From the NCBI RefSeq assembly GCF_017464355.1, contig NZ_JAFUAG010000005.1, forward strand, positions 22,977 to 86,976: a stretch of 64,000 nt of DNA, in the 5' to 3' direction. Shown here piece by piece: positions 38,598 to 63,850 of the stretch (its first letter is position 1; the number at the start of each line of letters is the position of its first letter). The notes beneath the pieces are model-generated. The model had not been told where the DNA came from, searched no databases, and saw only the letters and a program-made list of their open reading frames with translations. The stretch is from Ruminococcus sp. Lineage in GTDB: Bacteria; Bacillota; Clostridia; Oscillospirales; Ruminococcaceae. The translations under genes and the position numbers were made by a program.

Positions 38598-38623
38598 ATC
38601 TTTTCGTTTACGGAGATGAATAT

Positions 38624-44357: not shown

Positions 44358-44385
44358 CCTCGCAAACGGCGTGTTTGCGAGGCTT
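44358..44385 (+). terminator. Hairpin before the left attachment site
   Basis: Perfect 10-bp stem CCTCGCAAAC / GTTTGCGAGG (44358-44367 and 44373-44382) followed by CTTT. Confidence 0.6.
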
Positions 44386-44391
44386 TAAGCT

Positions 44392-44410
44392 GCAGGGGCA
44401 CCAAGGGTCG
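44392..44410 (+). repeat. Left attachment site (duplicated tRNA-Trp 3' end)
   Basis: GCAGGGGCACCAAGG followed by GTCG is the same as 63832-63850 (first 15 bases identical, 18 of 19 overall) and in the same orientation. 63833-63850 is the 3' end of the tRNA-Trp gene, so this is the distal copy made on integration. It bounds the element on the left. Confidence 0.8.
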
Positions 44411-44514
44411 CTCCCTGCGGGCAGTGCTTAGTGTTTTTCACGCTGCCCTTTCCGCTGTCAATAGATCGAAAGACACATAAACTTAAATCCGCATAAGCGG
44501 TGAAAGGAAAAAAC

Positions 44515-45312
44515 ATGAAAAACACAAAGATGATCGCAGTAGCAAATCAGAAGGGCGGTGTGGGCAAAACCACCACTACCATCAATGTAGGTGCAGCGCT
44601 TGCACTTATGGGCAAGAAGGTTCTTCTCGTTGACCTTGATACGCAGGAGTCGATGTCCAACTTTTTCGGCATATACAATGCTGACAACAATATTGGCAAG
44701 GCGCTCTACAAGACGGTCAGCCGTGAAGCTATTGACCTGGCGGACTATATCGTTACAAACGAGGTAAACGGAGTTGATATGATACCGGCAGAGCTGAACA
44801 CCATGCAGCGTATCGCCATAGACCTTGTATCGGTAAGAAGCAAGGAAACGGTTTTCCGCAGACTTATCAATCAGAACAGTGAAGTGCTTGAAAGATACGA
44901 CTACATTTTGCTTGATTGTCCCCCCTCCCTCAATGTTATACTGGATAACGCACTTACGGCCAGCCGATATGTGCTTATCCCCTGTCAGGCTCACCCTCTG
45001 AGCTATCCCCCGCTGCCTAACCTGCTTTTGCAGATAGATGAGATCCGGGCAGAACTGAACGAAAACATTGAAGTCATCGGCATTGTGCCAACAATGGTCG
45101 ATCGCAGCTCCAACAGCAGACAGACCGTCGATATGCTGCGTGAAAACTACGCTGACACACTTTTTGAGACCGAGATAGAACGCATGGCCGTTGCCGCAAA
45201 TTCCGCACTTACCGAAAAAGCGGTCGTGCTTTCCAATGCAAAGGACAATCGGGTATCCCGTGAATACAAGGATCTCGCTAACGAACTGGTCAACCGTATC
45301 AAGGGGGTGTAA
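44515..45312 (+). CDS. parA: ParA/Soj-type partition ATPase
   Basis: 265 residues. The deviant Walker A motif KGGVGKTTTTINVGAAL with the signature Lys, DLDTQESMSNFFG, and Walker B YDYILLDCPPSLNVIL define ParA/Soj. AAAGGAA precedes ATG 44515. In ICEs of the Tn1549 type, parA-parB open the element and help keep the excised circle. Its reading frame is intact although the partner ParB is not. Parts of its antisense strand happen to be open for hundreds of codons. Confidence 0.92.
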   Translation: MKNTKMIAVANQKGGVGKTTTTINVGAALALMGKKVLLVDLDTQESMSNFFGIYNADNNIGKALYKTVSREAIDLADYIVTNEVNGVDMIPAELNTMQRIAIDLVSVRSKETVFRRLINQNSEVLERYDYILLDCPPSLNVILDNALTASRYVLIPCQAHPLSYPPLPNLLLQIDEIRAELNENIEVIGIVPTMVDRSSNSRQTVDMLRENYADTLFETEIERMAVAANSALTEKAVVLSNAKDNRVSREYKDLANELVNRIKGV

Positions 45313-45315
45313 GGC

Positions 45316-45519
45316 ATGAAATTTGACAAGGTAAAAGAAACATTCTCGGAGAGAAAAGAAAAAGGCAGCATAAAGGAGAGCCTTATCTCCGCCGAAGAAG
45401 TGCTGAACGAGATAACCGAGATAGCTATGCACAAGCTGGATATGTACGCCGATGAGGACGGCAACCAGCCCTTTGATAGGATTATACTCCACCCATTCTC
45501 CATCGACAAGTGTTTCTAA
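45316..45519 (+). pseudogene. parB 5' remnant
   Basis: Starts 3 bases after parA. The first 53 codons (KFDKVKETFSERKEKGSIKE through DEDGNQPF) look like the start of an ICE ParB; normally the ParB/Srx fold would follow. Instead, after about 45474, 14 unrelated codons lead to a stop. The break coincides with the end of the minus-strand gene 45478-45825. The protein lacks its nuclease/CTPase and DNA-binding parts and cannot act as ParB. Confidence 0.75.
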
Positions 45520-45825
45520 CTTTCCCCATTCAGGTTTTCCAATGTCACGCCCTTTTACTCTAATCGGAATTAAAGCATCGTGCTGACAAAACGGCAACGG
45601 ATCATTAATGTCTATCCAACCTCTTTCATCTATTTCATCATTCCAATCATCATATACATCTTCCAAATCATTATAATACTGGTCAAACGAACATTGAATT
45701 GCATCTATACTGCAATATTGAAATAGGAAAACCCCTTCGTTTTTTGTTTGATAAATCATTATTTTGTGAATATAATCACTCTCGTTGCACTTCATAGGAT
45801 TTTTTAGAAAAGCATATTTCCTCAT
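45478..45825 (-). pseudogene. Hypothetical acidic protein, 3' end cut at the parB junction
   Basis: Starts at ATG 45825 with GGAGG 7 bases upstream and a near-consensus promoter. About 116 own codons can be read (MRKYAFLKNPMKC, DLEDVYDDWNDEIDERGW, PEWGKLETLVDGEW). It is rich in Asp, Glu and aromatics, like immunity or SMI1-type proteins, but I recognise no family. After EYNPIKG the frame runs on through the antisense of parB and parA as far as 44458, so the real 3' end has been lost or a 455-aa chimaera would be made. Confidence 0.55.
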
Positions 45826-45867
45826 ACTACAGCCTCCGTATTCAATTTGAGGGTTACTGCTGAACTT

Positions 45868-45896
45868 ATTATATATCAATTTTATGAATCAGTCAA
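45868..45896 (-). promoter_or_regulatory. Promoter of the truncated minus-strand gene
   Basis: On the minus strand TTGACT (45896-45891), 17-bp spacer, TATAAT (45873-45868). Confidence 0.7.
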
Positions 45897-46021
45897 CCAC
45901 CCACTTTCATCAAACTGCCGCCCAGACTGCGCAATAACTGCGCCGTACCAGATTACAATTTCAAGTATGACCGCCGACCGAAGCGGCGGCATAAAAGAGA
46001 GAAAGTCGCTGACGCTCCAAT

Positions 46022-46206
46022 TCTCGCCATGACAGCGAGAAAACCGCCGAAAGGCGGTAAAAGCCGTGCCGATGAAAAATCGGCACTCTCAGTTCGCAAG
46101 CACGGTGGATTGTGCCGCGTTTCGGAAAACACGGACAAATCCACGATACTTGTCAGGGGAAAAATTTCCCCTAAAACCCCTAAATAAAAAGACCGCTGAT
46201 GCGGTC
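46022..46206. other. oriT-like region with five hairpins
   Basis: Five separate inverted repeats in 185 bases: TCTCGC/GCGAGA (46022-46040), ACCGCC-GAAA-GGCGGT (46043-46058), GTGCCGAT/ATCGGCAC (46066-46086), AGGGGAAA/TTTCCCCT (46155-46172) and GACCGC-TGAT-GCGGTC (46191-46206). It lies directly before mobC, where the transfer origin of such elements is found. The nick site cannot be fixed by eye. Confidence 0.5.
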
Positions 46207-46226
46207 AAAAGCGAAAGGAGACTTTT

Positions 46227-47438
46227 ATGACAAAAGCCGAAAAGAATTACAAGAGAGATTACGGTCACAAGGACAGTGCAGAGCTTGCTTTGAATTACAC
46301 CCGTGACGGTATGCGTGAGGAACTTGACGGTGTGCTTGAAAAGGTCAGTCCCGATGAGCTTACAGCGGACGAGCAGGAGTATCTAAACGGACGGGATCAG
46401 TGTCGTAATCATACGCTGAATATCCGCTTCAATGATACCGAATGGGAGCATATTTGCAGGCAGGCGGAGCTTCTTCATGTGAAGAAGTCAAGTTATGTCA
46501 GGGAGTGTGCGAAAGCGCACTATGTTCTGATGATGGATCAAAGCGACATGAATGGCATTATCGGTGCGGTCAGAGCCTTATCCACCAACGTGAATCAGAT
46601 TGCCCGACGAGCCAATAAAACGAGCAGAATTTACAGCGAAGATATTACTACAACGAAAGAGAGTGTGAATGCGATTTGGCAGTTACTAAGCTACATTGTT
46701 ATTAAGGACAGCGATGACTTTGCAGATTTCCTGCTGAAATGCGCTCAGAACGGCATACTTGTCTACTACGATCCGGAGCATACGATAGACCTGAAATTTA
46801 TGCTTGCGGAGCAGAAGGAACGCAATCCGAGAGCCAAAATGACGAGGGCGAAAACACTTGGGTGGTTTTACGAAACGGAGCAGATCAAAAGCCGTATTAT
46901 CCACTACAAGAAAGCTATGGAAAAGAAGCCGAGAGCGCTGATAAGGCGAGTGCCTGTGCAGGCGGAGGAAAACAAGTTTATCCGTGACAGCATCGACCGC
47001 ACCAACATGAAGCTGACAAGCAAGGCGATGAATATTCTTGCCAAGTATGGCGTGACCGCTGAGGAGGCGAAAGCTGAGAGCATCGCAGCGTTCAGCGAGA
47101 GGGTGGCGCTTGTTCAGGAACTTAACGATATTTCGGACGAGATCAAGGAGCTTGAAGAACGTGCCGAAACGCTGAGAAAATTCTGGGCTTTCAAGCCGTA
47201 TTACGATGAATACAAGTCCCTCAGCGGACGAAAACAGGAGAAGTATAAAAAGGCTCAGAAAAATGCTCGATATAAGGCTATCAAGCTAAAAGCGGACGAA
47301 CTGTCGCAGGCGGCGAATGAGATCGAGCAGTATCTACGTCAGGAGCAGAGCAGGGAGCGCAGAAAAAGAAAAATAGGAGTGTGCTTGAATAACAGGCTCT
47401 CCGACGAACGGAGTGTCAACACAGAAATGTTTCCATAA
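46227..47438 (+). CDS. mobC: MobC fused in frame to a relaxase C-terminal tail
   Basis: 403 residues. Residues 60-155 are a normal MobC relaxosome protein: ribbon-helix-helix NHTLNIRFNDTEWEHICRQA, KKSSYVRECAKA, IGAVRALSTNVNQIARRANK, and ESVNAIWQLLSYI. From about residue 160 the sequence becomes the end of a MobA/relaxase protein (FADFLLKCAQNGI, RAKTLGWFYETEQIKSRI, then coiled coil to a basic tail RERRKRK). The catalytic Tyr/HUH part of the relaxase is missing, so an in-frame deletion near 46698 joined the two genes. AAAGGAG precedes the ATG. It could still bind oriT but not nick it. Confidence 0.78.
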   Translation: MTKAEKNYKRDYGHKDSAELALNYTRDGMREELDGVLEKVSPDELTADEQEYLNGRDQCRNHTLNIRFNDTEWEHICRQAELLHVKKSSYVRECAKAHYVLMMDQSDMNGIIGAVRALSTNVNQIARRANKTSRIYSEDITTTKESVNAIWQLLSYIVIKDSDDFADFLLKCAQNGILVYYDPEHTIDLKFMLAEQKERNPRAKMTRAKTLGWFYETEQIKSRIIHYKKAMEKKPRALIRRVPVQAEENKFIRDSIDRTNMKLTSKAMNILAKYGVTAEEAKAESIAAFSERVALVQELNDISDEIKELEERAETLRKFWAFKPYYDEYKSLSGRKQEKYKKAQKNARYKAIKLKADELSQAANEIEQYLRQEQSRERRKRKIGVCLNNRLSDERSVNTEMFP

Positions 47439-47446
47439 ACAAGAAA

Positions 47447-47475
47447 ACTCCCGTATCAGCAAAGAATACGGGAGT
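47447..47475 (-). terminator. Terminator of the pilus cluster
   Basis: Perfect 10-bp stem ACTCCCGTAT / ATACGGGAGT followed on the minus strand by TTTTC; can also stop mobC transcripts. Confidence 0.85.
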
Positions 47476-47480
47476 AGATC

Positions 47481-50400
47481 TTATTCAGTTTCTTTTCTTC
47501 TGCGTAGTTTTAAATATCCAATGCCTGACATTGTCAATAAACCAACAGCAGCTGTTGCAGCAGTACTCAGATCAATGCCCGTAGGCAGTGTACCGTTAAG
47601 TGTGTTCGTGTACAAGACCTTATGGTCATCTGCAAGCGTACCTGATATTGTTTTATTATTTACAGGGTCTTCCTCTGTACTTCCCACGGTTCTTGTGATC
47701 GATGTTATGTAGTCATCTGCCTGATTTTCGGTCAGTATGTAGCCTGTATTTTTAGGCAATCCTTCAAACACGATCTTTTCACCATGAGACAGTGTGAATG
47801 GAAACGTGCCGTCATTATTAAGAGTAATAGTTCTATTCCTCTCACCATTAAAGGTCGCACGAAGTCCTGTTCCTGTAATTGCTGTGCCGTCCGCGGCAGT
47901 AAACCTGATCACAAAGCTGAAATCCTTTGCTTTATTACCAAGATTTCCTGCTACGGTCTTATCCACTTCAAGTGTGTACGTTGGCACTTTTTTGTTTTGG
48001 AGCGAATAAGTATATGCCGTTCCGCTTACAGTTGCATCACGGAAGAACTTATATTCATCTGAATTGATCGTTTCAGTGTCAGCACCGTTGATCAAAGGTG
48101 TATATGCAGTAGGGCAATCCTCCCATAGGAAGTATACATACTTGTATGTCACAGTATTGCCTGCGCCAACGCTGACCTCCTTGCTCTTTTCAAGATCGGC
48201 GATCTCCTGCTGCCATTTGTTGTCTTTGTTCAGCTTGACCGTCATAAATTTCGGCTCAACGCTCATGTAGTATGTTTTTCCGTCATCAGTAGTATACTTT
48301 AATGCTCTGCCGAGATAGGTGTTCAGGAACGATGGAATCGTAGGTTCTGCTTCCGAACTGCCATACTTCATGACAGTGCCGTCTTCGGCGATCGGCATTT
48401 CATTTCCGTTTTCGTCAAACCATATCTTTTTGACTGTGATAACATACTTATCATGTATCAGCGTTTTGGTATTTGTAAATTCCACAGCCTGCCTGTCTTT
48501 TACGGTTTGCTGACCTGTTGTAACACCGCCGTCCGTGTTCGCAGTATTCGTCTGCGCATACTCTTCAAGGCTCGTATCTGTCAGCGTTTCCTCGGTTATG
48601 GTGTATTTTGCCGTTGCAGGAAGATCGCTGAACGTTACGTTTTGCGACTGTTTCAGCTTGGTCTCGAAGCTGACATTTCCGTTTTTATCAACGGCTTTAC
48701 CCGAAGGCAGCCAGCTGTACGGATATTCAGGAACAAGTCCCGAGAAGTTTACAGTAAATGAAAACTCTGTATCTCTCCATTCCGTATCATCATCAAGACT
48801 CAGCGTCTTAAGCGTTCCCGTGCCGTCATTTTCATTCAGCAGAGATGTCTTGCTCAGTGTAAGATCATTTGTTATGATACGGTTCTCGATGACGACCTCA
48901 GCCTCTTCATTCTTACGGATAGTTCCTGACAGCGGTGCAGCAGTGACTATCTCATACAGGGCGGTATCGTCTATGGTTTCGCTGACCGTGTATTTCGCAC
49001 CCACAGGCAGACCCGACAGGATAATCTCCTCATTGGCTTTCAGCTCAAACTCTGCCTGACCGTTTGCGTCGAACGGAGTTTTTGTGTAAGCTGAATTATC
49101 TGACTTTTTCATAACGACATTGAAAGTGAATGTCTGATCGGGGTCAAGGACAATGTCATTCTCCATAGTCTTTTTCAGCTTTAAAGAGCCTGTATCCTGA
49201 TCTGTCGCAGTGTTCACAAGCAGCGCCTTGCCGTCATCGCCCTTTGTTATCTTCGGGTTATTTTCGGAGGTGTCCGCTTTGTATGTGCCGAATTTTTCTT
49301 CCCAAAGGTAGAATTCTTCATCGGCATTGTTGACATTCATTACAAGCTGCCAGTCGGGTGAATCGCCGTTGATGACTTTTTTCCATGTAGCCGTTGTTTC
49401 CTTTGTGTAGTAGTATTCCGTCACATGGGTATCGTCCAGCGGCACACGAATGGTAAGGTTTATCGTCTGGGGTACGGTGTATTCGCGTTCGCTGACGAAT
49501 GTTCCCGCCTCACCTGTAATGTACTCATAGACAAATTCGGTCTTGCGGTTCGGGTCTTCATCTACCTCCTTTTCCTCGGCAGGTGACAGCACTGTAAAGC
49601 CGTTGGGGGCTTCGGAATAGTCCTGTGCAGCAGCCCTCAGCGCGCCCCCTGCAAACAGCGGGCGGGAAGCGGAATTCAGTGCGTTTGTGGAATCGAAGCT
49701 GTACCCCTCTTTTCCTGTAAAGAATGACTTGTAGTAATCTGAGTAGTACTCGCTTGTAAACTCTGTTGCATCTATTATATATGCTGAATTAAAATAAGGA
49801 CCATACAGACGACTATCATTATCATTTGTTTTCCCATTATAGATAAAGGTCCCATATGAGCTGCCATTAGCTATGCCTCTTAAGTAATCCTCGTGATAAA
49901 CAACATCGAGATGTTTTGGATTACCCTGTATATAGCCTCCGGCATTAACTGGGGTATCATTATTCTGAGCATTTTTAAACCTGGAATCATAGAGATTGAT
50001 TCTGAAGCAATCGTCCATCTCCTTGTTCCAAGAACAATTCGATGTGGTGTTCCATTTACACTTAGCAAAAATCTTACAGCAAGTGGCATTTATTGCTGTT
50101 CCGCCAGACCCATGATTTCCGAGATTCATAAATGCAGACCGTATATCACTAAGCTTGGTATCAGAAGCTGTTCCGGTCGAAAAATTACTTAAATCAATAT
50201 ATTCCATCCAGAAACAATTATAAAACCACTTATTTATAGTTTCCAGATTAGGACAATCTGAAAAACCTCTCAGGTCGATCTTCTGGAGAGCTCTACACTC
50301 ACTGAACATACTGTCCACAGATGTCAGCTTGTCGGCTGCTGTGAACTTGGTGTAGTCGAGCTTTATCTCGGTGACAGCTTTCATATTTTCAAACATACTT

Positions 50401-53400
50401 GCAAAAGTAGTGACGTTTGAGGTCGTGAAGCCACTGAGATCAAGCGATGTGACCTTTTCACAGCCCTTGAACATATTGCTCATATTTGTCAGCTTATCTG
50501 TAGTGACGAGCGAACTCAGATCAATTGAAGTCAGGTTTGAACAGCCCTCAAACATACTCTGCATGGTAGTCACTTTTTCGCCGTTGAAATCATTCAGGTC
50601 AATTGAAGTAAATCCGCTGTTGTTACAGTTTTTAAACATTTCCTGACAGCTTTCAGGCAGATAGATTATGTTTGCATCGCTCCACCACTTGACCTTTTTG
50701 TCGGTAGGATCCCACCATGCGTAGAACTCTCCGTCCTCGCCGTCAACATCGGCTTTGCACGCAATAGCATTGTCAGGCTTGGTTGAGGAACGCTCTAATC
50801 CTGTAAAGTTCGCTTTGTTACCTTGTATCAGTGTTTTTAGTCCGTCACCGATCGTAACGACCTTGACACTCACCGAGGGCTTCTCATTTTTCAAATGCAC
50901 CGTCGGGAATTTCGGGGCGCTTGGATCAACTGTTATCTCGCCTACCCATGATTTGTCGATGTTCTTTTTATCTTCATAGGTCGGCTCGTCACCTATACGG
51001 ATATAGTCCGCATTCTCGGGTGAATAAGCATCATCATACTCATGTGTCGAAATGTTCAGCACAAGGTATTCAAGTGCATTGCTGTCATCAAATACGACCT
51101 TGCCGCCTGTTACACTGAAAGTCTTGTCGGCTATGGTTGCATAGCCCTTGGGGGCAGTGGTCTCCGAAAGCGTATATCCGCTGCCTGGTATCAGCTGTAC
51201 CATATCGAATTCGCCCTTGATACTGCCGCCTGTGACGGTCTGCTTCCAGTTCGTGCCGTCAAAGGTCCACTTGAAGTCAGCGGCTTCATCTCTTTTGATA
51301 TAGGACTGTTGCAGTGCCGCATATCTGTCATTCAGCGTTGTGGGGGCTGTGACTGTAAATACAGCGCCGTCAAGAGGGTTCTTGCTTATGCTGTCAGCCT
51401 TGATGAGCTTTGTACTTGCCAATGGGTCATTACTGATAGTGTTTTCTTTAATGCCTTCAATGCTGAACGTTGCCGAGTAATTGCCCGTCTTTGTTACAGT
51501 TACTGTATAGGAATTTGTTGCAGGCGCAGCATATCCGTCAGCAGGATATTCCTCGGTAAGCGTATATGTTCCCGGTTCAACTGAACTGAAAGTCACTGTG
51601 CCGCCTGTGCTGTATTCAGTCATATCAACAGAAGTGTTCAGGTCTGATGTACCTTTCAGCGTAAACTTTGCACCGCTGATGTTACCGCCTGTGACAGAAT
51701 CGACTTTGGAGAATACAATATCGGTATGGGGTCTGGGCTCATTGGTTATCTTGTATATGCCGTTTTCCTTTTCAAGCTCAGTGCCGTCTATCTCAACGAT
51801 AGTGACCAGCCCGTCAGGCCGAACAGTTACTTTTTTCGACTCCTTGTCAAGAATATGGTCATCGTCCGAGATAGTTTCCGTCAAGGTGTATGTTCCTCTT
51901 TCAAGATCTTCAAAAAGAACCTTGCCTTGTTTGTCCGAGGTAAGTGTTTCATCATAGGGTTTTCCGTAATCGGAAATTCCCGCCAGGTTGAACTGAACAC
52001 CCTCTATCTTACTGCCTGTCTTACTGTCGTTCTTGGTAAATTCAAGATCGCCTGTGACCATATAGGACACCTCAGTGTAGTCAAAGTGGGTGTAATAATA
52101 CTGATCCAGCGTTTTACTCTCGTCAGTCGGGTCTATGGGCATATTTGTGAATGAACGGTACACGTTATTATAGGTTTTCAGCGGTGTAAGGAACTGACCG
52201 TCCTCCACATCGACCGGTCTTGTATCCAGCCATGACTTCGGTGCTGTCATCGTCACCGTGAAGCTCATGCTCGCGCCCTTTGGCAGTGTGAATTCTTCGC
52301 CTGTGTACACGATGAATGCTGTTACTTTGCCAAGATCGCCGGGGTCTTTCCAGTTTACCTCTTCCCAGCCGTCATGCTCCTCATATTCATCACTGTCCTC
52401 TTTTATCTCACCCAAAATTGATCTCAGCAGATTCTGACGTTCTACAGCATTTGAATAAACGCTGTCATCATCAAGATCTATGATTTCATTGCCTTTGTAT
52501 ACAAAAAGGTGCAGGTCATTGGCAAGATCGCCCATACGGTTCTCGATAGCTGACAGGTTAAAGCTCTTTACAGTACCGTTCCAATCTCTGTCTTTATTGA
52601 TACCATAGTTGTATTGTATACCGTCTTTTGTTCTGTAATTCTCTATCGAGTCAAGGATAGCAATATCACGAGCCTTTGTGGTCGAAGCATTTTTCATACG
52701 GAAGTGATAAGTGTAATCTTCACTGGGATGAACAACAGCACTCTGTTTCTGTGAAGGATCGGATTTTGAGGAAACATATTTGAAAATACCCGATGCTGTC
52801 TGTATCAGCGCAACGATATTCTCCGTTGCTTCCGCATAGATAAATCTCTTGGCATTTCCGTTATCCGGGTCAAGACCTATCATATAGGCAGATTTTGAAA
52901 CAGCATGATTACCGCCGTTATCAGGATAACCGCCGCCGATATTCTCATTGCCTGTCTGATAAGCGATGGTATTGTTGGCTATCGGCCCGTAGTCCTGAAT
53001 ATCTGCATGAGAATGAACTGTTGCATAGGTCAGCCGATAATTTTTCTGACAGGGAGCATATATTTCCACTGTCATCAGCTTCTGTCCCGAGCCTGCATGG
53101 TCATCTTCTCTTGGCAGTACCTTGAACGATGAAGACGGCAGAGGTGTCGATTTATCATCTATATATACGTTCACACTTCCTTCGATCACATCGCTGTAAA
53201 GCGGCAGAAGGTCATAGAACACACCCGACTGCTGCTCAACAGGTACATTGTTTACCGTAACGCCGTCGATCGCACCCGAGTAAAGCTCCTGTACTTTAGT
53301 TTCCCATGTTACGATATACTGGCGGTTCAGCGTGTCATTTATCGTCTTATACGACTCGCCGTCCTTGCCTGTGATAGGTGCATCATTCTCATTTCTTGCT

Positions 53401-55757: not shown

Positions 55758-56445
55758 TCTTATCTTCCTCCTCGTTGTTATCCCGTTTGAAAAGAAATGT
55801 AGAAATTGCTATCAAAATTGAATAAAGCATTGTCATTCAGACCGCATTGGCAGAAAAGCTGTCTTCGGTCAGAACGTTTTCGATAAATCCTGTTATCGGA
55901 TCTCCGTTATTGTCATTAGTAAGCGAAGTATCGGTCGTTGAAGATGTTGTATCAGTCGCTCCTGATGTCGTGTCTGAATCAAAAGTGCCTTAATAGTCGT
56001 TTTCAAATTCTATTTTATCGGGCTTTTCGTCCTTTCCCCCGCTCTTAGCGACAACCGTATATTTCAGCGTGCTATCGGAAACGTCCTCAACAAATACTGT
56101 TACGCTATAAATATTCTTATCATATTTAATATCAGGCTCATTGCCTTCTTTTTCATAGACCTTGTACACAAAAGTGCCGGGTTCATCAATATCTATCTCA
56201 AATTTTCCTGTGCCGTTTTCGGTAATTTCCAACGTATCGGACTTAGGCATCGGAGAAATTTCATTTTCTGATCCAATTATAATAGTATATGTGTGTGTCA
56301 TGCCGTCCGGTATCTCCAGACAGGTGACAGGTATCTCTGCTTCAAGCGTTACATACGCCAAAGCTCTTATTCCCATAAAAGGAAAAACAAAACAGGAGAG
56401 CAAGCATACTGCCATAAGGCATATCAAGCTCCTTATTTTTCTCAT
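55747..56445 (-). pseudogene. Spy0128-like pilus subunit interrupted by two in-frame stops
   Basis: The first open part (55990-56445, 151 aa) has a signal peptide (LICLMAVCLLSCFVFPFMG) and a Spy0128/FctA-like isopeptide domain (EIPVTCLEIPDGMTHTYTI, GTFVYKVYEKEG, YSVTVFVEDV) and stops with TAA after KIEFENDY. The same frame then goes on for 50 codons of Ser/Thr/Asp-rich linker (GTFDSDTTSGATDTTSST and DPITGF), meets TGA (55837-55839), and continues MTMLYSILIAISTFLFKRD plus an acidic tail to TAG at 55747. The last part is a membrane anchor, so the full ancestral gene had 230 or so codons and overlapped the adhesin start by 11 bases. Either two nonsense changes or readthrough. Confidence 0.75.
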
Positions 56446-56469
56446 AAACTCACTCTCCTCGTAATGTTT

Positions 56470-57162
56470 TCAATCAATGTAGCAGAATACAAGTGTCCTC
56501 GAAATGGAGTCTCCCTCCGCACAGGTGGACAGTGCAAGGATACGCTGACCTGTATCTGCCGTGTAAGTCTCACAATGTTCCTTGATAAATTGCCGTATAT
56601 CGCCCTTGTCGGGGTCAAATACAGCTTCGTCCTTTGCACTCGCACGCATGGCGGCGAATACAGTAAGGTCGTAGATCTTTTCGGCATCTTTGCCGACGAT
56701 CAGTGTTCCCGATGAATGACTGTTCAGATATGACGTATCCAAGAAATCGTCCAGTGCGCCGAACATTCGCCCGTATTCCATGTGGTGTCCGTAAATAAGC
56801 GAGTAATCATCGGAAAAGTCGGGAGCGTTCCTGCTGTCGAGAAAAATGCTCCCCGACAGAGAATACTTACCGAAAGGATCGGTATTGAGGTACTTTACAT
56901 TATCATCGCCCTGCATAACGGGGTAGTCGATGTTCGTTCCGTCAATGGTGATCCAAGCGACCATATCATCGGTTATCTGCTGATCCCCATGCGCAGCCTC
57001 GTTCTGCCACGGCTTGTACTTTGAAATGTCGTCGTTAAGAGCATGGCTGTATACATAATAGTTATCATACATACACCACATCACGACTAGCAGTATCAGC
57101 ACCAGCACGATCATAACGAGCCGCTCATAGATGATATTCATTGTTTTCCAGAATCTAAGCAA
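56470..57162 (-). CDS. srtB: Class B sortase
   Basis: 230 residues. One N-terminal transmembrane helix (LVMIVLVLILLVVMWCMYDN), then the sortase barrel: DMVAWITIDGTNIDYPVMQG, YGHHMEYGRMFG (catalytic His), LALSTCAEGD (catalytic Cys in a TLSTC-like motif) and SRTLVFCYID (Arg). The order and the STC motif suit class B. It would join the pilins, all of which carry I/LPTG motifs, and perhaps anchor them to the wall. It begins 6 bases after the pilin stop. Confidence 0.93.
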   Translation of the reverse strand: MLRFWKTMNIIYERLVMIVLVLILLVVMWCMYDNYYVYSHALNDDISKYKPWQNEAAHGDQQITDDMVAWITIDGTNIDYPVMQGDDNVKYLNTDPFGKYSLSGSIFLDSRNAPDFSDDYSLIYGHHMEYGRMFGALDDFLDTSYLNSHSSGTLIVGKDAEKIYDLTVFAAMRASAKDEAVFDPDKGDIRQFIKEHCETYTADTGQRILALSTCAEGDSISRTLVFCYID

Positions 57163-57168
57163 GGCAGC

Positions 57169-58833
57169 TTATTCTTCCTCAGCTTTTCTGCGCTTGTTTT
57201 TGATGACCAGATAAGCGATACCGCTGATAACTACAACGCCGACTCCTGCGGGGGCAGCCACCGAGAGAAGTATGCCTGTGGGGATCGTGCCCTGACGGGT
57301 ATTCTTGAATGCAGCGTTTGTATCCTTTGTAAGTGCTGTATCTGCATATTTCGCAGTCCATGATTCAACGGTAGAATCAGTGGTGTCAACAGTAAGACTT
57401 GTGATATTGGTACCTGCATCTTCATCACCGTTCTTTGTATCGCCTGTCAGAACAAATTCAGGCTCATAGTCTTCCTGATACTCAGTGATCGTATAGCTTG
57501 TTTTATCTGAAAGGCCCTTGATGGTAACAGTATTGCCGTGCTGGAGATAGTAATAAGCTGTTATAGTGCCCTCTGTAGTTGAACCCGAGTTAAGGGCAAA
57601 TGTATAACCATCATCTGCAACTTTTTTGGTTGTATCCGCAACGAGCTGAGCCGCATTTTTCTGACTTGCATAGCGTGCCTGTGTTGCAGCATTCACTGTC
57701 TCGGGAACAGCACTTTCTGCCTCAGCGATGTCCACATCAAACAGATTGCCCGCGGTAGCATTTTTGATCTCGACTTTGAACATGAAGAACTTATCTCTTG
57801 AAGCCTGATTGCCGTCAACGGTCTTGCTGAATGTAAGATCGTGAGTGACATAAGTGTTCTTGAATCCAACCGACTTTGTAGCACTTGCCACTTCAAGACC
57901 ATTTGAAGTCTTTGTTGTATTATCCTCCATAGTTGCGGCTGTACCTGATATTGCAGTATTTGAATTAGAAGGTCCGGTAGTCTGTGTACCAACATACATA
58001 ACATAACCGGCAATTTTCAGCTTCTTGTTGTATGTATAGGTATAGCTGCCCTCCTCACCGCTTCTGGTATAGTAGGAAGCATCTTCTACGTAGACATCGA
58101 GTGTTCTTGTTGTATCGGTATCATTGATAATACCTGTATTTACATTTTCGGACGTTGTTGATTCTGTGATCAAATAACGATAAACTCCCGGCTCGGTAAA
58201 TCCACAATCTGAGAAATCAAGTTCAACTTCCTTTTCAGCATAGTAAGTTGCTGCATTACCATCGCTGAGTACAACATTATCATTTGTAACAGTAATTGTC
58301 GAACCACTTGCCGCATTGCTGCTGCCAAGAGTAACATCGTTTGCTGCATAAGCTACGGGGATCGCACTGCTCTCATTTCCGGCAGTTGTAACAGTAGTCG
58401 CTGTAATAGCGGCACTGCCTGCGGTTGCAAATGCAAGATGATCGCTATTATCAGCAACCGTCTTATAGGTGATTTTGTCAGGGTCAACACCTGCAAGTAC
58501 AGCAAGGGTACTGCTTGTTGCATCAACAGCACTTCCGGCAGTCGCAGTAAAAGTAAAACTGCACGCAGGAATATTTGCGCCGTCCTCAATTTCAAGAACC
58601 TTTTTGAGCATAGTGGTATTGTCAGTTGCTAAATCAGCTGTAATTGGTGTTCCGTCTGTATCGGAGTATGCACTTGATCGTGATACCGTTCCGGTTATCA
58701 AAGCGTTATTTGATCCGCTCGGAACATCATATTTCGTTCCTGCCGCACTCGCCCCCAAAGGCATTGAAAGAGCCATAGAAGCGATCATTGCCAGCGAAGC
58801 CACGCCCGCTGCAATTCGTTTCGTTCTTTTCAT
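57169..58833 (-). CDS. Major pilin, sortase substrate (IPTG motif)
   Basis: 554 residues. Signal peptide 1-31 (AAGVASLAMIASMALSMPLG, cleaved at ASA-AG). Very rich in Thr, Ala and Ser. Two Spy0128/Cna-B-like domains are visible: about 60-290 (DCGFTEPGVYRYLITEST, TLDVYVEDAS, KIAGYVMYVG) and about 320-510 (HDLTFSKTVDGNQASRDKFF, LSDKTSYTITEYQ). The end is QGTIPTGILLSV, a hydrophobic helix and IKNKRRKAEEE. This is the layout of a main pilus shaft subunit. AGGAGGGAT precedes its ATG. No YPK-type pilin motif was found by eye. Confidence 0.88.
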   Translation of the reverse strand: MKRTKRIAAGVASLAMIASMALSMPLGASAAGTKYDVPSGSNNALITGTVSRSSAYSDTDGTPITADLATDNTTMLKKVLEIEDGANIPACSFTFTATAGSAVDATSSTLAVLAGVDPDKITYKTVADNSDHLAFATAGSAAITATTVTTAGNESSAIPVAYAANDVTLGSSNAASGSTITVTNDNVVLSDGNAATYYAEKEVELDFSDCGFTEPGVYRYLITESTTSENVNTGIINDTDTTRTLDVYVEDASYYTRSGEEGSYTYTYNKKLKIAGYVMYVGTQTTGPSNSNTAISGTAATMEDNTTKTSNGLEVASATKSVGFKNTYVTHDLTFSKTVDGNQASRDKFFMFKVEIKNATAGNLFDVDIAEAESAVPETVNAATQARYASQKNAAQLVADTTKKVADDGYTFALNSGSTTEGTITAYYYLQHGNTVTIKGLSDKTSYTITEYQEDYEPEFVLTGDTKNGDEDAGTNITSLTVDTTDSTVESWTAKYADTALTKDTNAAFKNTRQGTIPTGILLSVAAPAGVGVVVISGIAYLVIKNKRRKAEEE

Positions 58834-58861
58834 TAAAGATCCCTCCTGATAATTCTATTGC

Positions 58862-59107
58862 TTATATACCACGCTTCCGCATAACGAATACTACCTTGCC
58901 CTGTACATCGTCAAGCCCTATCGCACCGAATGTGCGGCTGTCGGATATATCACTTCGGTAGTCATTCATAACGAAAACGCAGTTTTCTGAAACTGTGTAT
59001 GGGAACGTGATACTTGCTCCCTCTGATGTGGTGGAATATAGCGTATCTTCAAAAATGCCATAACCGTTCACGGTCACATGATCGGCTCTGATGTCAACGC
59101 TGTCACC
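58862..59107 (-). pseudogene. Signal peptidase I, 3' remnant
   Basis: Open from GDSVDIRADHVTVNGYG to RKRGI. Box E is recognisable as MNDYRSDISDSRTFGAIG, and the end IQGKVVFVMRK-like (VQGKVVFVMRK) is typical. The stop TAG at 59108-59110 lies just before the first homologous codon, GD of RVIGLPGD, so the catalytic Ser (box B) and Lys (box D) parts are lost. The break is at the edge of the IS605-type remnant. In related pilus clusters a signal peptidase heads the operon. Confidence 0.8.
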
Positions 59108-60346
59108 CTATAAATAGAGAATTGAAGCCCTCACGGGTCATTCTTGATGTTTCGCTGTGTATGCTTTCACGGCTCTCACCGCTGATCACAAGTTCGGGTA
59201 CACTCCGCAGCCGTAAATTCCCGTCCGACCGACGGTATATATTATATTCTTATCCTGTTGTGTAAATTACCATATCTCTCAGGTTGTAGCTTGCGTTCAA
59301 AGACCTGTCCTCGGTATATCCGCATGAACACCGAAATGTATCAGAGGATATGGACGCTCCCTTATTCAGCAGGCCGCATGAACTGCAAATGTTCGCCGAG
59401 CGGAAGCTCTTTTCTGCTGCCCTGAGCTGAATGCCTGTCTCATGACATTTTGATGTGAGTCTTTCTCTGAATCGCCTTAGCTTCTGACCTAAAAGATACT
59501 TCGCTACATAATGATCTTTCATCAGCCGGGAAACATTTATATCAGAAATAGCGATAAAAGACGGCTTGGTTTTCACTATCTCCGCTATTGTCTGGTCTAT
59601 ATAATTGTCACGGATATTGCTGATCTTCCAATACAACCGCTGTAGCTTCAGCTTTTGCTTTTCAATATTTCTGCCCTGTGTCTGACCGTCTTGCTTTTCA
59701 TTTTCCGGTTTCCTTGAAAACCGTCTATGCTCACGGATACCGAGGTGAAGTCCGATGCCGTCCGTCATTTCGGCAGGAGCGATCGTAGGTTTATCCGGCA
59801 TATCGAGCAGAACGGAAACAAAATATCGTCCCGCACGTTTGGAGATCCTGCCGCTTTTGACCCATACCCCTATGCTGTTGTAGGGATATAGCCCTTCTCT
59901 TTGAGCCGCACCCGGCCGAGTGACGGGATTTTGAGCCTGTGCCGTTCACATTCGCAGTCACGGCTGTTCTTTCTGTAAAAAAACATCTTTACATCGGAGT
60001 CCTTTTTCTTCTTGAATTGCGGAAAACCGCCTTTCTTCTTGAAGGACTTCTGAAATGCGTGATCGGCATCGTCAATACTGCGCTTAACAGCACCGGTATT
60101 GACCTCTTTTATCCACATATAGTCAGGATCGTTCGGCAGAAACTCATGATTCATCCATATGTTAAAAGCATGACCTCTCATGAACTGTTCTCCGTTTTCA
60201 TACCATTCCTTATTCTGCGATATGAAAAATTATAAATAGATCTGCATACGCCCTATTGTTTTGTTGATTTTTGTGATCTGCTCGGGTGTCGGGTCTATCT
60301 CGACTTTGAAGCTCCTGTACATTTCATCACCTCAAAGGAAAAATCA
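59108..60346 (-). mobile_element. IS605/IS1341-type insertion remnant
   Basis: Holds a broken tnpB and about 140 bases of downstream sequence that ends at the truncated signal peptidase gene. The inner edge near 59108-59135 has CCCGTGAGGG, as in transposon ends with an RNA scaffold. No tnpA is seen. The left limit near 60346 is a guess. Confidence 0.5.
59250..60322 (-). pseudogene. tnpB: tnpB (IS605 OrfB) pseudogene
   Basis: Starts MYRSFKVEIDPTPEQ at 60322 behind GAGGTGATG. An in-frame TAA follows after codon 30, the next part (QNKEWYENGEQFMRG, to SLGRVRLKEKGYIPTTA) ends in TAG near 59881, and the C-terminal half lies in another frame (KSGRISKRAGRYFVSV, then 59801-59250). The RuvC-I motif reads GIGLHLGI where GIDLGI is expected, so the catalytic Asp is His; RuvC-II reads AISDINV where AIEDLNV is expected, so the Glu is also lost. 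The zinc finger CSSCG...CSCG and the tail EDRSLNASYNL are kept. It is dead as a nuclease. Confidence 0.85.
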
Positions 60347-60664: not shown

Positions 60665-60937
60665 ATCTTTTTCCTGTCCTTGTACACCTAAACCCTCTCC
60701 TGAGCATATTTGCTGATAGTTAAATCATCTGTTTTCGCAAAATTAAGGATTTGACGATATGGTAAAATAGTTAACATAAAGAATAATAACACACGTCATC
60801 GGCATATCCGATTTATATAGCTATTATTAATATCCAGTATATCAAATTTTAAGCACATTGTCAAGATGTTTTGCCAGGTTTTGTATTTATTCATCAAGAG
60901 CAACAAATTCGCTGTAAATTTTATTGGAGGTACTACG

Positions 60938-61054
60938 ATGAGCAAAGGAACAATATATAAACGCAAGGACGGGCGCCGGGAGGCTCGTATTTCTATGGGA
61001 AAAGATGAAAACGGGAAACGGCAATGGAGGACTTTGCTCTTCGTGCGGGACTAA
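60938..61054 (+). pseudogene. Integrase N-terminal stub
   Basis: ATG 60938 behind TTGGAGG. The 38 codons SKGTIYKRKDGRREARISMG and ENGKRQW are the typical arm-binding (AP2-like) start of a tyrosine integrase of the Tn916/XerC type. At about 61027 the match ends and a stop follows, so the SAM-like and catalytic R-H-R-Y domains are gone. This explains why the element is fixed in tRNA-Trp. Confidence 0.7.
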
Positions 61055-61182
61055 TAGACAGCAGCCGTTATCTCGATGAAAAAGAGTACGCTGACTTACT
61101 TGAAAATGGTCAGCTGCCTGAGCGTTTTGAAGATATTATTTCCGAAAATATTCAGGACGACCACGGCGGATATCACCGCTGA
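61027..61182 (+). pseudogene. C-terminal fragment of a conjugation gene, joined to the integrase stub
   Basis: In another frame from the integrase stub and overlapping its end: EDFALRAGLIDSSRYLDEKE, then LLENGQLPERFEDI to YHR and TGA. It has no start codon or ribosome site of its own. Such an end is plausible for the gene that precedes the coupling-protein genes in Tn1549-like elements, but I cannot name it. Confidence 0.5.
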
Positions 61183-61227
61183 GAGCTTAATACTTTAGCA
61201 ATTATATAAAGGGAGAAAGGATAGACC

Positions 61228-61609
61228 ATGAACATAGAAGACGCTTTTTTTGAGTATCCTTACGCTGAGTTCAGGAGTGATCTTGAAGAAGAATTCACTG
61301 ATATAGTCAAGAGAAAAAGAAAGGTATATATGACGAGTATCGGGCTCATCGGCCTGGGAATTGCTTTTCTCCTGACCTTTCTGCTCACCCGGGCTGCTTG
61401 TGCTGGCACTTGTGTTGATGATAAGTGGTTCTATGATAGTAAAAAGCACGAACAAGAGTGATGAACACAGGCTGGAAATTACCGCAAGCAGCACAGAAAT
61501 GGAGCTGGTCTATCTGACTAACAGCAGATACTTCAAGCGGATATTTACCGCTGATCTTAACGATACAGTAATTGGATTCCCGTTAGTCCAATCACTGCTT
61601 TCATTATAA
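61228..61609 (+). pseudogene. Small membrane protein gene with a frameshift
   Basis: ATG 61228 behind GGGAGAAAGG. The first frame (MNIEDAFFEYPYAEFRSDLE, then helix GLIGLGIAFLLTFLL) goes on to 61461, but near 61395 the hydrophobic run continues in the +1 frame as LLVLALVLMISGSMIV and KSTNKSDEHRLEITASS to 61609. Together they would make a two-helix protein of about 125 residues. One base change near 61395 explains both parts. Family unknown; it precedes the coupling protein remnant. Confidence 0.55.
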
Positions 61610-61621
61610 CTTAGGTTTCGA

Positions 61622-62821
61622 GTGCGTGTAAACCATGCCTGGCTTGTCATGGATCTATACAATTGTAATTATTATAGTACGCTGGCTTCCAACATAAACA
61701 TCTTCGGCTCTGATCTAGGTATTGCCAAGCTTACATCGGGAAATCAGATAAACTTTTACGAGTTGGTCGATCCGGAAAAACCCCTGGCCGTTTTCATGGT
61801 AGTACCCGATGATAATCCTGCCCGTTGGATAATCAGTTCCCTTTTCGTAAATCAGTGCTACAATTCACTGGTATCACTATCCGCAAAGTGTATAGGTCAG
61901 AAACTGCCTCAGAGGGTGCATTTTATCCTGGACGAATTCGGCAACATGGTGCGAATACCCGATATGGACAGCAAAATTACCGTCGGCGCAGGCAGAAATC
62001 TGCTATTCAATATGTTTATCCAGGACCTTAACCAGCTGGACACAAAGTATGATAAGGCCGCAAAGACGATACGTTCCAACTGCGGTAACATGATATATAT
62101 AAACTCCCTGGACAAGGATACGAACGAATATATATCCTCTATCCTCGGTACAAAAACCGTAGAGTATACCACATACAGCGGAAAGCTCAGCGAATTTGTC
62201 GAAAATAAGAACCTGGTCGTGGAGGGCCAGCCTCTGATGTCGGCCACGGAGCTATCCAACATGGAATTTGGTTCGGCCATAACTAAAAGGCAGCGCCTTT
62301 ATCCTATCAAAACCAAATTTGAACCGTTCTACAAGCTTGGTATCAAGCCCACACCTATTGAGGATATCGCAAAGGATATGGATATTATCGACCTTCCACT
62401 GTCTGATACTCTGTTCGATATGGAATTGTTGTGGACTCCGCTATTTGTACCTAAGATAGACGGCAGGTCCGGGAAAGCAATGGTTGAGACCGATGAACGG
62501 GGATTTGCTGTACCCGTCACCAACTGGAACGATATACGCAAGTCCTATGAAGAACGCAGGAAGGTCAGCCTTACTAAATCATCTGCACGAACCAATTTTG
62601 CCAATGACACCGTCGATGAGAACTTGGCGCTCAATTCATCGCTGCAGTACATCATCAAGGCGCTCGATGAGCTTTCAGGCGGCCAGTTTACGCAGGATTA
62701 CAACAACTGTAAGTGGGAGCAGGCAGAAAAGGTCGTCAAAACAGCTATTGGCCGTGGTGTTATCGACCCCAAGCAGCGTGATGAGATAATGCAGTATATC
62801 AACAATTCTCACAACGTTTAA
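61622..62821 (+). pseudogene. VirD4/TcpA-type coupling protein, C-terminal remnant
   Basis: About 399 codons. Residues from VNHAWLVMDLYNCNYYS on match the second half of a conjugation coupling ATPase: Walker B RVHFILDEFGNMVRIPDMDS, VGAGRNLLFNMFIQDLNQLD, and KTIRSNCGNMIYI. The N-terminal membrane helices and the Walker A lobe are missing, and only a GTG with no ribosome site is available as a start. It cannot energise transfer. C-terminal tail to 62821 is intact. Confidence 0.8.
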
Positions 62822-62925
62822 CATATTAATACGGCGAAAATGCTTTTGACTGACCGGGGTTGACAATGGCTGAAATATAGGTTATACTGATCAAAGTAAT
62901 TCAGAACATCGGCAGAGGTGGTCAA

Positions 62926-63228
62926 ATGAAAATATATACTATAATAGGCGGTGTCAATGGTGTCGGCAAGAGCAGCTTGTCGGGTGTACTGGTCAATCAG
63001 CGAAACGATATGGGTGTTATAATAGACACTGACAAGATCACCGCTGAAAATGGTGTGGATAAACTGCATGGCGGTAAAATTGCTATACAGCGGATCAACA
63101 GCTGCCTGGAAAAAGGTGTTAACTTCACCCAGGAAACTACCCTATCCGAAGTAAGAACTATAAAAACGATAAAGAAGGCAATTGAAAAAGATTACTATAT
63201 CAGGTTGTATTACGTCGGTATCAAATGA
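62926..63228 (+). pseudogene. Zeta-toxin-like P-loop kinase, truncated
   Basis: ATG 62926 behind AGAGGTGG. Walker A IIGGVNGVGKSSLSG, then VIIDTDKITAENG and ETTLSEVRTIKTIKKA, as in zeta-like kinases common on ICEs. The family normally has about 190 residues; here the frame stops after YYIRLYYVGI. Downstream, another frame gives a short tail (DDYMYTKDRIKAYAEN) to TAA at 63294, probably the end of a different gene. No epsilon-like antitoxin is next to it. Confidence 0.6.
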
Positions 63229-63302
63229 TGACTATATGTATACAAAAGATAGAATTAAAGCTTATGCCGAAAATATTATTGATTTGAAGTTATAATAAAA
63301 AA

Positions 63303-63341
63303 GAGAGTCTAACCAAAAATAGTTGGACTCTCATATTTTTA
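63303..63341 (+). terminator. Terminator after the zeta-like stub
   Basis: Stem GAGAGTC-TAAC / GTTG-GACTCTC followed by ATATTTTT. Confidence 0.75.
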
Positions 63342-63420
63342 CAAATCAGATAGTATGCAAGAAAAAATAACAAAGTAACAGTTTGCATTTGCAAGCCTGC
63401 CCCCCGGCAGCTACCTCAAT

Positions 63421-63750
63421 GTGCGCCGTGACCACTTAGTGACAGTAAGTGCAGCGAGTATAAACACTGTGGTGTGAGATACCGAGATGTAATCGGGAAG
63501 TCATGACCTGTATCGGTCATGCAAAGGGCGCAGCCGACAGCAAGGCGATGTCAATGACGGAGTTTGTCACTTCCAGACGTTGCTGATGACTAGGCGATCT
63601 ACCAAGATCTGCGTCAAAAGGAAAACATTTTGGGAAAATTAAAAAGTATTCTCCGCTGATAAACAGCGGTAATAATACAAAACAACAGGCTGGTAGCAGT
63701 ACCGCTTGTTGGCACAAATTTACTGATAACAATGGATTTGTGCCAGCAAG
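63421..63750 (+). ncRNA. Structured non-coding region, possibly the 5' part of a group II intron
   Basis: About 330 bases without a credible gene. It begins GTGCGCC, the form of a group II intron 5' end (GUGYG), and TGCGCC (63422-63427) can pair with GGCGCA (63529-63534), as a domain I base stem. Further stems: ATGACC/GGTCAT near 63505, CCGCTG-ATAA-CAGCGG (63654-63669), and TGGCACAAAT / ATTTGTGCCA (63710-63719 and 63736-63745). No domain V or intron protein follows, so it would be a truncated copy. Another structured RNA class is possible. Confidence 0.4.
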
Positions 63751-63792
63751 TGAATTGCCTACACTGTGTCTATAGACACACTTTTTATATAT

Positions 63793-63826
63793 GAAAAACC
63801 CCGCAAGGGAATTTCTTCCCTCACGG
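63793..63826 (-). terminator. Terminator of the tRNA pair
   Basis: On the minus strand CCGTGAGGGAA-GAAA-TTCCCTTGCGG (63826-63801), 11 bp with two G-T pairs, followed by GGTTTTTC. The tRNAs therefore keep a terminator on the element side of the attachment site. Confidence 0.8.
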
Positions 63827-63831
63827 AGAAA

Positions 63832-63850
63832 GCAGGGGCACCAAGGATCG
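63832..63850 (+). repeat. Right attachment site inside the tRNA-Trp gene
   Basis: GCAGGGGCACCAAGG-ATCG: the 3' 18 bases of the tRNA gene plus one base. Direct repeat of 44392-44410. Confidence 0.8.

What the first reader, a model, noticed from the sequence alone, without database searches (positions are those of the whole stretch)
44392..63850. A 19.4-kb immobile ICE in tRNA-Trp that carries a sortase-pilus cluster as cargo
The last 18 bases of tRNA-Trp plus one flanking base (63832-63850) recur in direct orientation at 44392-44410 (15 exact, 18 of 19). Between them every transfer gene is partial: integrase stub, relaxase without catalytic part, VirD4 without Walker A, parB cut. The pilus genes are by comparison nearly complete. 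This suggests that the conjugation machinery was lost while the adhesin cargo was kept, i.e. domestication of an ICE-borne pilus.
Basis: partly seen in the sequence, partly recalled or inferred. Interest (0 to 1): 0.8.

Follow-up and report, generated by a model that had tools for sequence, protein, structure and literature searches.

The report
Decayed tRNA-Trp ICE holding damaged pilus
In a Ruminococcus chromosome, the two ends and a few broken genes of an old self-transferring DNA element still sit in a tRNA gene, and between them lies a pilus operon that probably travels separately and is itself partly broken, so this is an ordinary kind of mobile-DNA ruin rather than a tamed pilus.

Summary
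The repeat is real: 44392-44410 matches the tRNA-Trp 3' end 18 of 19. The borders hold up: a relative (G027) has an unoccupied tRNA-Trp whose flank aligns with 44218-44391, and R. albus 8 has both ICE ends in one element. But the repeat is a 15-bp stump of a 43-bp att, fused to the ParA leader by a ~192-bp deletion. ParB, relaxase, VirD4 and zeta are broken. The ICE's own integrase is absent; the 'integrase stub' is a different recombinase linked to the pilus block. The pilus is not core to this ICE family. Its signal-peptidase fragment is 93% identical to a copy beside hslO in G024 (core genes 78-85%), which has the same stub and IS607-like remnant and no ICE gene beside it. The pilus is also decaying: signal peptidase cut to its last 81 residues, minor pilin with two in-frame stops. 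Tip adhesin, sortase, major pilin and a promoter remain. The VirD4 fragment, surely dead, has a substitution ratio as low as the intact R. albus 7 copy, so open frames do not prove retention. Verdict: a composite decayed ICE. Domestication is not supported.

The parts
44352..44385 (-). tRNA-Trp transcription terminator hairpin, stranded at the far border
   Evidence: fold -21 kcal/mol, z -4.24; a similar inverted repeat, seen by eye in the alignments, follows tRNA-Trp in G027 and other loci
44392..44406 (.). attL stump: last 15 bp of tRNA-Trp, fused at an AGG microhomology to the ParA leader
   Evidence: full repeat in relatives is 43-48 bp
44404..45476 (+). ICE left end: ParA leader, parA and the start of parB
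   Evidence: 87% DNA to R. albus 8, 84% to AR67
44515..45312 (+). parA, intact (265 aa)
   Evidence: Pfam AAA_31 1.9e-47; 92% aa to R. albus 8
45316..45519 (+). parB remnant, 54 homologous residues of 297
45902..47412 (+). MobC fused in frame to relaxase C-terminus (ORF 46227-47438); 557 bp missing at 46697|46698, including the relaxase nuclease domain
47481..55757 (-). giant tip/adhesin pilin, 2758 aa, open
   Evidence: SpaA, DUF7601, DUF285 domains; 74-75% aa to G012/G009
55990..56445 (-). FctA-type minor pilin, broken: in-frame stops at about 55992 and 55839; anchor part cut off
   Evidence: FctA 6.1e-13; intact 241 aa in G009
56470..57162 (-). pilus sortase, 230 aa, open
   Evidence: Sortase 3.9e-13; nearest PDB chains 3psq and SrtB-family 4y4q
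57169..58833 (-). major pilin, 554 aa, open, IPTG-type sorting end (by eye)
   Evidence: DUF7601 1.7e-6; 54% aa to G012
58862..59109 (-). signal peptidase (sip) remnant: last 81 of 184 residues
   Evidence: 184 aa in G009, 193 aa in G024
59144..60278 (-). IS607-like remnant: frameshifted tnpB (59250-60181) and RAGATH-18-like RNA (59144-59211); called IS607 because of that RNA
   Evidence: Cas12f1-like_TNB 2.2e-13 on the C-terminal piece; frame break; Rfam 36.3 bits, below the 44.9 gathering score
60836..60864 (-). probable pilus operon promoter, TTGACA-17-TATACT
   Evidence: 11 of 12; 8 promoter-like sites in the region against 5.1 in shuffles; same hexamers upstream of sip in G009 and G024
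60922..61014 (+). N-terminal stub of a tyrosine recombinase, not the ICE's own
   Evidence: 85% DNA to a 362-aa integrase-like gene of R. albus 8 C52; remnant also in G024:C40
61012..61609 (+). T4SS-region remnants: end of a 262-aa gene and a frameshifted 219-aa gene
   Evidence: 46-48% aa to R. albus 7 and AR67 ICE genes
61574..61692 (.). repeat sequence at a deletion junction, 94% to R. albus 8 C8
61676..62821 (+). VirD4 C-terminal fragment
   Evidence: 77% aa to R. albus 7 VirD4 of 735 aa
62926..63228 (+). zeta-like kinase fragment, 100 aa against 190 aa in R. albus 8 C8
   Evidence: Zeta_toxin 5.5e-5
63375..63831 (.). conserved ICE right end, with terminator hairpin 63788-63825 (-)
   Evidence: 85-86% DNA in R. 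albus 7 (two loci), R. albus 8 and AR67; alignment; fold z -4.29
63832..63905 (-). tRNA-Trp (CCA) with intact 3' end (attR side)

Best explanation
A conjugative element (ICE) of a family found in R. albus integrated into the 3' end of tRNA-Trp and left the native tRNA terminator at the far border (supported by the empty site and conserved ends; that its own tyrosine integrase did it is inferred). It then decayed by deletions: the attL core, the integrase, the relaxase catalytic domain, most of the T4SS and half of VirD4 are gone (shown by comparison). A pilus operon, flanked by a fragment of a different integrase and an IS607-like remnant, lies in the middle (shown). It was probably acquired laterally and inserted into the element or into a tandem array at this tRNA (inferred). 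It has lost the signal peptidase start and the anchor of its minor pilin (shown), so it probably no longer builds a normal anchored pilus, although sortase, major pilin, tip and a promoter survive (inferred). The island cannot excise by itself (inferred).
For: Empty site with a similar flank. ICE ends shared with R. albus 8, AR67 and R. albus 7. 43-bp att in relatives against a 15-bp stump. Gene truncations. R. albus 8 carries left end, an integrase and right end on one contig stretch. Sortase and pilin not seen in the fetched ICE-family loci, and no ICE protein match at 15 of 15 other pilus loci examined, of 18 known. sip 93% to G024 against 78-85% for core genes.
Against: MobC-relaxase and the ICE ends have not been seen together in one intact element, so blocks from two elements are possible. 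The stretch left of the T4SS genes in the R. albus 7 ICE is withheld (N). 45476-45902 has no informative relative. The empty-site flank is only 69% identical over 207 bp. G024 holds both ICE pieces (C105) and a pilus sip (C40), on different contigs, so a past link there cannot be excluded. The lateral-transfer inference rests on one 261-bp stretch.
Confidence: 0.8

Rival explanations
1. Domestication: the host kept the pilus for its own use while the ICE's transfer genes were lost.
For: An 8.3-kb tip frame, sortase and major pilin are open. Pairwise dN/dS of tip and sortase is 0.09-0.17. A promoter is conserved with G009 and G024.
Against: sip is decapitated and fctA has two stops. The VirD4 fragment, surely dead, has N:S 15:57, like intact R. 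albus 7 (15.7:53.3; G024 is 34:53), so the pattern predates decay. Tip N:S on the window branch (310:364) is higher than in G009 (174:287, p 0.006) and G012 (198:382, p 2.5e-5).
Confidence: 0.12
2. Tandem accretion (a version of the best explanation): two or three elements integrated one after another at tRNA-Trp; the pilus came in its own integrase-bearing island and internal att sites were deleted later.
For: AR67 shows ICE right end, att and ParA of a second element in a row. A foreign integrase stub is next to the pilus, also in G024 without ICE genes beside it. A MobC-relaxase relative in R. albus 7 lies near an integrase-like gene in what looks, by eye, like a mobilisable element. The own genome's second tRNA-Trp is occupied by another element.
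Against: No internal att copy remains in the window. R. albus 8 shows that the left and right ICE ends belong to one element.
Confidence: 0.4
3. The pilus operon is an old chromosomal neighbour of tRNA-Trp that was caught between ICE pieces by rearrangement.
For: G020:C74 has the same kind of operon, same orientation, 2 kb from tRNA-Trp, without ICE protein matches; G027 has a distant pilus type (sortases 34-37%) beside its empty tRNA-Trp.
Against: 1 of 15 other loci of this pilus type fetched has a tRNA-Trp in the fetched stretch. In the window the operon is inside, not outside, the ICE ends. The sip fragment is more alike between G000 and G024 than core genes are.
Confidence: 0.1
4. The pilus genes are the ICE's own mating adhesin, part of its conjugation module.
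For: Some Firmicute conjugative elements carry surface adhesins and sortases (recalled, not tested).
Against: In R. albus 7, 8, AR67 and G024, which hold the ICE family, no sortase above 46% identity (the type here is 52% or more) and no major pilin match was found, nor in the fetched ICE loci. G024 has an intact sip of this type, but on a contig without ICE genes in the stretch read.
Confidence: 0.03

Closest known systems
Decayed ICE (dICE) and cis-mobilizable element (CIME), as in Streptococcus salivarius/agalactiae (PMC7563491, PMC5704250; passages read)
   Same: Derived from an ICE by deletion, no working recombination or conjugation genes, cargo kept, at a specific target gene with relatives in tandem arrays
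   Different: CIMEs keep both att sites; here attL is a 15-bp stump
R. albus 8 tRNA-Trp element (C106:46955 to the contig end) and R. albus 7 ICE ending at C5:3671524
   Same: Same left end (R. albus 8) and right end (both); the R. albus 8 element also lacks T4SS matches and has only a TopB piece
   Different: They keep a 340-344-aa integrase; R. albus 8 keeps the 43-bp repeat; the pilus was not found in either
Composite genomic island CGI48 in tRNA-Trp of Shewanella putrefaciens (PMC8978831; start of abstract in search listing only)
   Same: Composite island in tRNA-Trp
   Different: Different host group and, as far as the listing shows, different content
ICESag37 replacing pilus island PI-1 in group B Streptococcus (PMC8533585; abstract and passages read)
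   Same: An ICE and a sortase-pilus island share one chromosomal locus
   Different: There the ICE replaces the pilus island; here the pilus is inside the ICE ends
IS607 TnpB with RAGATH-18-derived RNA (PMC11061315; passages read)
   Same: TnpB-like gene followed on the same strand by a RAGATH-18-like RNA
   Different: TnpB is frameshifted here and the RNA scores below the gathering cut-off

Membership tests
Functional ICE | own integrase | tested here: not met
   No blastn match at 1e-3 between 44301-63831 and the integrase region of R. albus 8 or 7 (its tblastx rows were printed only in part); only a 93-bp stub of another recombinase
Functional ICE | relaxase with nuclease domain | tested here: not met
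   PF03432 lies at residues 19-157 of the R. albus 7 relative; residues 1-193 are missing in the window; no Relaxase hit on the window ORF
Functional ICE | coupling protein and T4SS | tested here: not met
   VirD4 C-terminal part only; no DNA match to the VirB4-like gene of R. albus 7
Decayed ICE | ICE ends in the target gene with broken module genes | tested here: met
CIME | both att sites retained | tested here: not met
   attR side (tRNA-Trp) complete; attL only 15 of 43 bp
Sortase-assembled pilus operon (FCT-like) | pilus sortase, major pilin and tip with sorting signals | tested here: met
   sorting signals read by eye
Sortase-assembled pilus operon (FCT-like) | intact minor pilin and signal peptidase as in G009 | tested here: not met
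Sortase-assembled pilus operon (FCT-like) | pili made by the cell | not testable with these tools
   needs microscopy or surface proteomics
IS607 TnpB-reRNA | TnpB plus downstream RAGATH-18 RNA | tested here: inconclusive
   TNB domain met; RNA 36.3 bits against 44.9; TnpB frameshifted

The most novel reading that the evidence does not exclude
The pilus block with its own integrase stub is a remnant of an integrative pilus island that moves between species of Ruminococcus and nests in ICEs at tRNA-Trp; the ruined copy here may still make sortase-linked fibres from the conserved promoter, now possibly transcribed together with the TnpB guide RNA that lies between promoter and pilus genes.
Probability: 0.15. 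Interest if true: 0.5.

Novelty: new member of a known kind. Interest (0 to 1): 0.3.

Why it matters
It documents a tRNA-Trp ICE family in the R. albus group of Ruminococcus, with an empty site, defined ends and differently decayed copies, and gives a hint that adhesive pilus operons move laterally there. It also cautions that open reading frames inside a decayed element are not evidence of domestication: a dead transfer gene looked as well preserved as an intact copy.

Tried and rejected
Rejected: chance repeat. Integrase stub as the ICE's own integrase. Pilus as ICE core module. dN/dS as proof of retention: the dead VirD4 control looked like the intact R. albus 7 copy. GC content as a border marker: it is 0.46-0.55 up to 43 kb and 0.39-0.48 from there, so the fall starts about 1 kb left of the border. 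Rfam gave no RNA family for the right end 63375-63831 at E up to 0.1. Paper searches for an R. albus ICE or conjugative transposon listed 3 and 2 papers, seen in the listing only; none is about such an element by title or start of abstract. Searches for Ruminococcus sortase pili (23 papers, 12 listed, 4 papers) gave nothing bearing on it in the listings. No claim that it is absent from print is made beyond these.

Not resolved: 45476-45902; how the pilus block got between the ICE ends; the left part of the R. albus 7 ICE; the fate of the pilus genes downstream of sip in G024.
Full report
Setting. The window is G000:C33:22977-86976 and ends where its contig ends, just past tRNA-Met. Relatives in the same genus include R. 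albus 8 (G023, whose contig C106 has the length of NZ_ADKM02000031) and R. albus AR67 (G004, C6 = NZ_FOKQ01000035). G022 is taken as R. albus 7 from its 3,685,408-base contig; that name is recalled, not from a call. G024, G027, G009, G012, G020 and G025 are unnamed genus members. Gene names given 'by eye' rest on reading the translation, not on a search.

The repeat and the borders. GCAGGGGCACCAAGG at 44392 copies the tRNA-Trp 3' end; over 19 bases 18 match, and no other place in 1-63800 on either strand reaches 15 of 19. In 200 first-order Markov simulations, one strand, the best match was 12-16. G027:C27 has a tRNA-Trp with no ICE gene beside it, and its downstream flank aligns with window 44218-44391 (blastn 69% over 207 bp; alignment); G027 has no match to the window VirD4. 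The window flank holds a terminator-like hairpin (z -4.24), and G027 shows a similar inverted repeat by eye. So the tRNA's own terminator now lies 19.4 kb away, while the ICE right end supplies another hairpin beside the tRNA (63788-63825, z -4.29).

One ICE family, both ends. In R. albus 8 a 43-base exact tRNA copy (C106:46955) is followed, about 160 bp after the repeat, by sequence 87% identical to window 44404-45476 (ParA and the start of ParB). At the other end the contig runs through the conserved right end (86%) into tRNA-Trp. Between them lie ParB of 297 aa, a TopB fragment and a 340-aa tyrosine integrase on the minus strand. So left and right ends belong to one element there. AR67 and the two tRNA-Trp loci of R. 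albus 7 share the right end, 85-86% without the tRNA. In the window the tRNA stump is joined directly to the ParA leader at AGG. Relative to R. albus 8, 192 bp are missing (L068 12968 to 13160; my arithmetic). So the 'repeat' is a 15-base stump of a 43-base att, and its last matches come from the ICE side.

Damage to the transfer genes. ParB keeps 54 of 297 residues. MobC is joined in frame to the relaxase C-terminus; the junction 46697|46698 skips 557 bp present in G024:C223, that is relaxase residues 1-193, and the nuclease domain of the R. albus 7 relative lies at 19-157. The 219-aa T4SS-region gene is frameshifted. VirD4 keeps about the last 380 of 735 residues. The zeta fragment has 100 aa against 190. 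ParA is intact. The ICE's own integrase is absent. R. albus 7 has, beside its second tRNA-Trp (C5:1553.6 kb), a pilus-free ICE remnant with an integrase-like gene (by eye) and a VirD4 tail; about 12 kb on lies a transporter gene (MATE, by eye) 78-81% identical to the window's 38498-39982. This looks like the same site, decayed differently.

The pilus block, 47438 to about 61014. It holds tip (2758 aa), FctA-type minor pilin, sortase (230 aa), major pilin (554 aa), signal peptidase (sip), an IS607-like tnpB remnant, a promoter and a recombinase stub. Tip, minor pilin and sortase are nearest to G009 and G012 among the loci compared. The stub (60922-61014) resembles a 362-aa integrase-like gene in R. 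albus 8 C52, not the ICE integrase. In G024:C40 an intact sip (93% DNA over 261 bp), an IS607-like remnant and the same stub region lie in this order beside hslO, engB and lon (by eye), with no ICE gene in the stretch listed. A multi-copy sequence, probably an insertion-sequence end, closes that contig at sip, so the rest of that operon is not seen. Core genes of that contig are 78-85% identical between G024 and G000 (81, 79, 85 and 78 for four stretches). The 93% therefore points to lateral transfer, on the evidence of one 261-bp stretch.

Is the pilus part of the ICE? Sortase matches of 52% identity or more lie at 19 loci in 13 of 29 genomes, window included. I fetched 15 of the 18 others (not G010:C303, G010:C222, G018:C23). 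Searching them with 17 window proteins at E 1e-4 gave no ParA, ParB, MobC-relaxase, VirD4, zeta or integrase-stub hit in 15 of 15; one of the 15, G020:C74, has tRNA-Trp 2 kb away. Flanks were limited by contig ends and by the 20-30 kb fetched. In the fetched ICE-family loci (L068-L078, L081, L089) no sortase, pilin, fctA or sip hit appeared; the only pilus-protein hit was a leucine-rich-repeat stretch of tip in L077 (32%, 1.5e-6). Another such stretch lies in L007, which has a ParA relative. Major-pilin matches were found in 13 of 29 genomes, and in none of R. albus 7, 8, AR67 and G024, whose sortase matches are all at 46% or less. So the pilus is not core to this ICE family.

Is the pilus kept? 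Against: sip has lost its first 103 of 184 residues (homology ends at 59109), and the FctA-type gene has two in-frame stops before its anchor part, while G009 has an intact 241-aa copy. G012 also lacks a clear intact sip, so sip loss alone may not be fatal. For: tip, sortase and major pilin are open. A TTGACA-17-TATACT promoter at 60864-60836 is conserved with G009 and G024; a site scoring 10 or more of 12 was found upstream of 12 of 14 pilus loci scanned, window included, a scan run without a shuffled control. Substitution counts (three taxa, changes unique to each branch, N:S): tip window 310:364, G009 174:287 (p 0.006), G012 198:382 (p 2.5e-5; tests); sortase 11:31, 8:22, 20:28; major pilin 22:27, 81:53, 20:37; fctA up to its first stop 15:16, 8:11, 17:21; parA 14.5:54.5, R. 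albus 8 1:16, AR67 8:39; VirD4 fragment 15:57, R. albus 7 15.7:53.3, G024 34:53. The VirD4 fragment cannot work and yet looks like the intact R. albus 7 copy. Decay is thus too recent for such ratios to show retention, and the tip shows, if anything, slightly looser constraint. Synonymous sites are saturated for VirD4 and near saturation for other pairs, so these are rough counts.

Mechanism proposed. Shown by comparison: an ICE in tRNA-Trp, then deletions. Inferred: integration by the lost integrase; entry of the pilus block by insertion or by accretion at this tRNA; no self-excision. AR67 shows a tandem of this family at a tRNA-Trp att, and the own genome's other tRNA-Trp is occupied by a different 6.2-kb element with a 462-aa integrase-like gene next to a 47-bp tRNA copy, so accretion is plausible.

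Place among known things. Decayed ICEs and CIMEs at tRNA and other target genes are well described; the definition read requires retained att sites for a CIME (PMC7563491, PMC5704250, passages). attL here fails that, so I file it as a decayed ICE of composite make-up. An ICE and a pilus island competing for one locus is known in group B Streptococcus (PMC8533585, abstract and passages). RAGATH-18 RNA with IS607 TnpB is known (PMC11061315, passages). I rate it a new member of a known kind.

Noticed in passing
G000:C10 (L067) 8854-15167: The own genome's other tRNA-Trp/tRNA-Met locus is also occupied: a 47-bp exact copy of the window's tRNA-Trp end and the local tRNA-Trp bracket about 6.2 kb with a 462-aa integrase-like and a primase-like gene (by eye).
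   Followed up: partly
window 63375-63831: A conserved ICE right end of about 450 bp, 85-86% identical in R. albus 7 (two loci), R. albus 8 and AR67, with no Rfam match and no clear gene; could be an attachment-arm region or an unknown RNA.
   Followed up: partly
window 59144-59211: RAGATH-18-like RNA (36.3 bits, below the cut-off) just downstream of a frameshifted TnpB and between the pilus promoter and the pilus genes.
   Followed up: partly
G004:C6 (L076 8551-10318): AR67 has an ICE right end, a 43-bp tRNA-Trp copy and then ParA/ParB of a second element: a tandem array.
   Followed up: partly
L146 (G020:C74) 3060-13549: Same pilus type, same orientation, 2 kb from tRNA-Trp and next to GntR/ABC-type genes (by eye) like those near the R. 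albus 7 tRNA-Trp locus, without ICE protein matches.
   Followed up: partly
window 61574-61692: Short repeated sequence at the T4SS/VirD4 deletion junction, found at four places near contig ends in AR67 (59 bp, 81%) and in R. albus 8 (94%); looks like an insertion-sequence end.
   Followed up: partly
window 42955-44067: Protein with a weak TPR match beside the left border, without a relative in the 60 other genomes of the genus, family and order searched.
   Followed up: no
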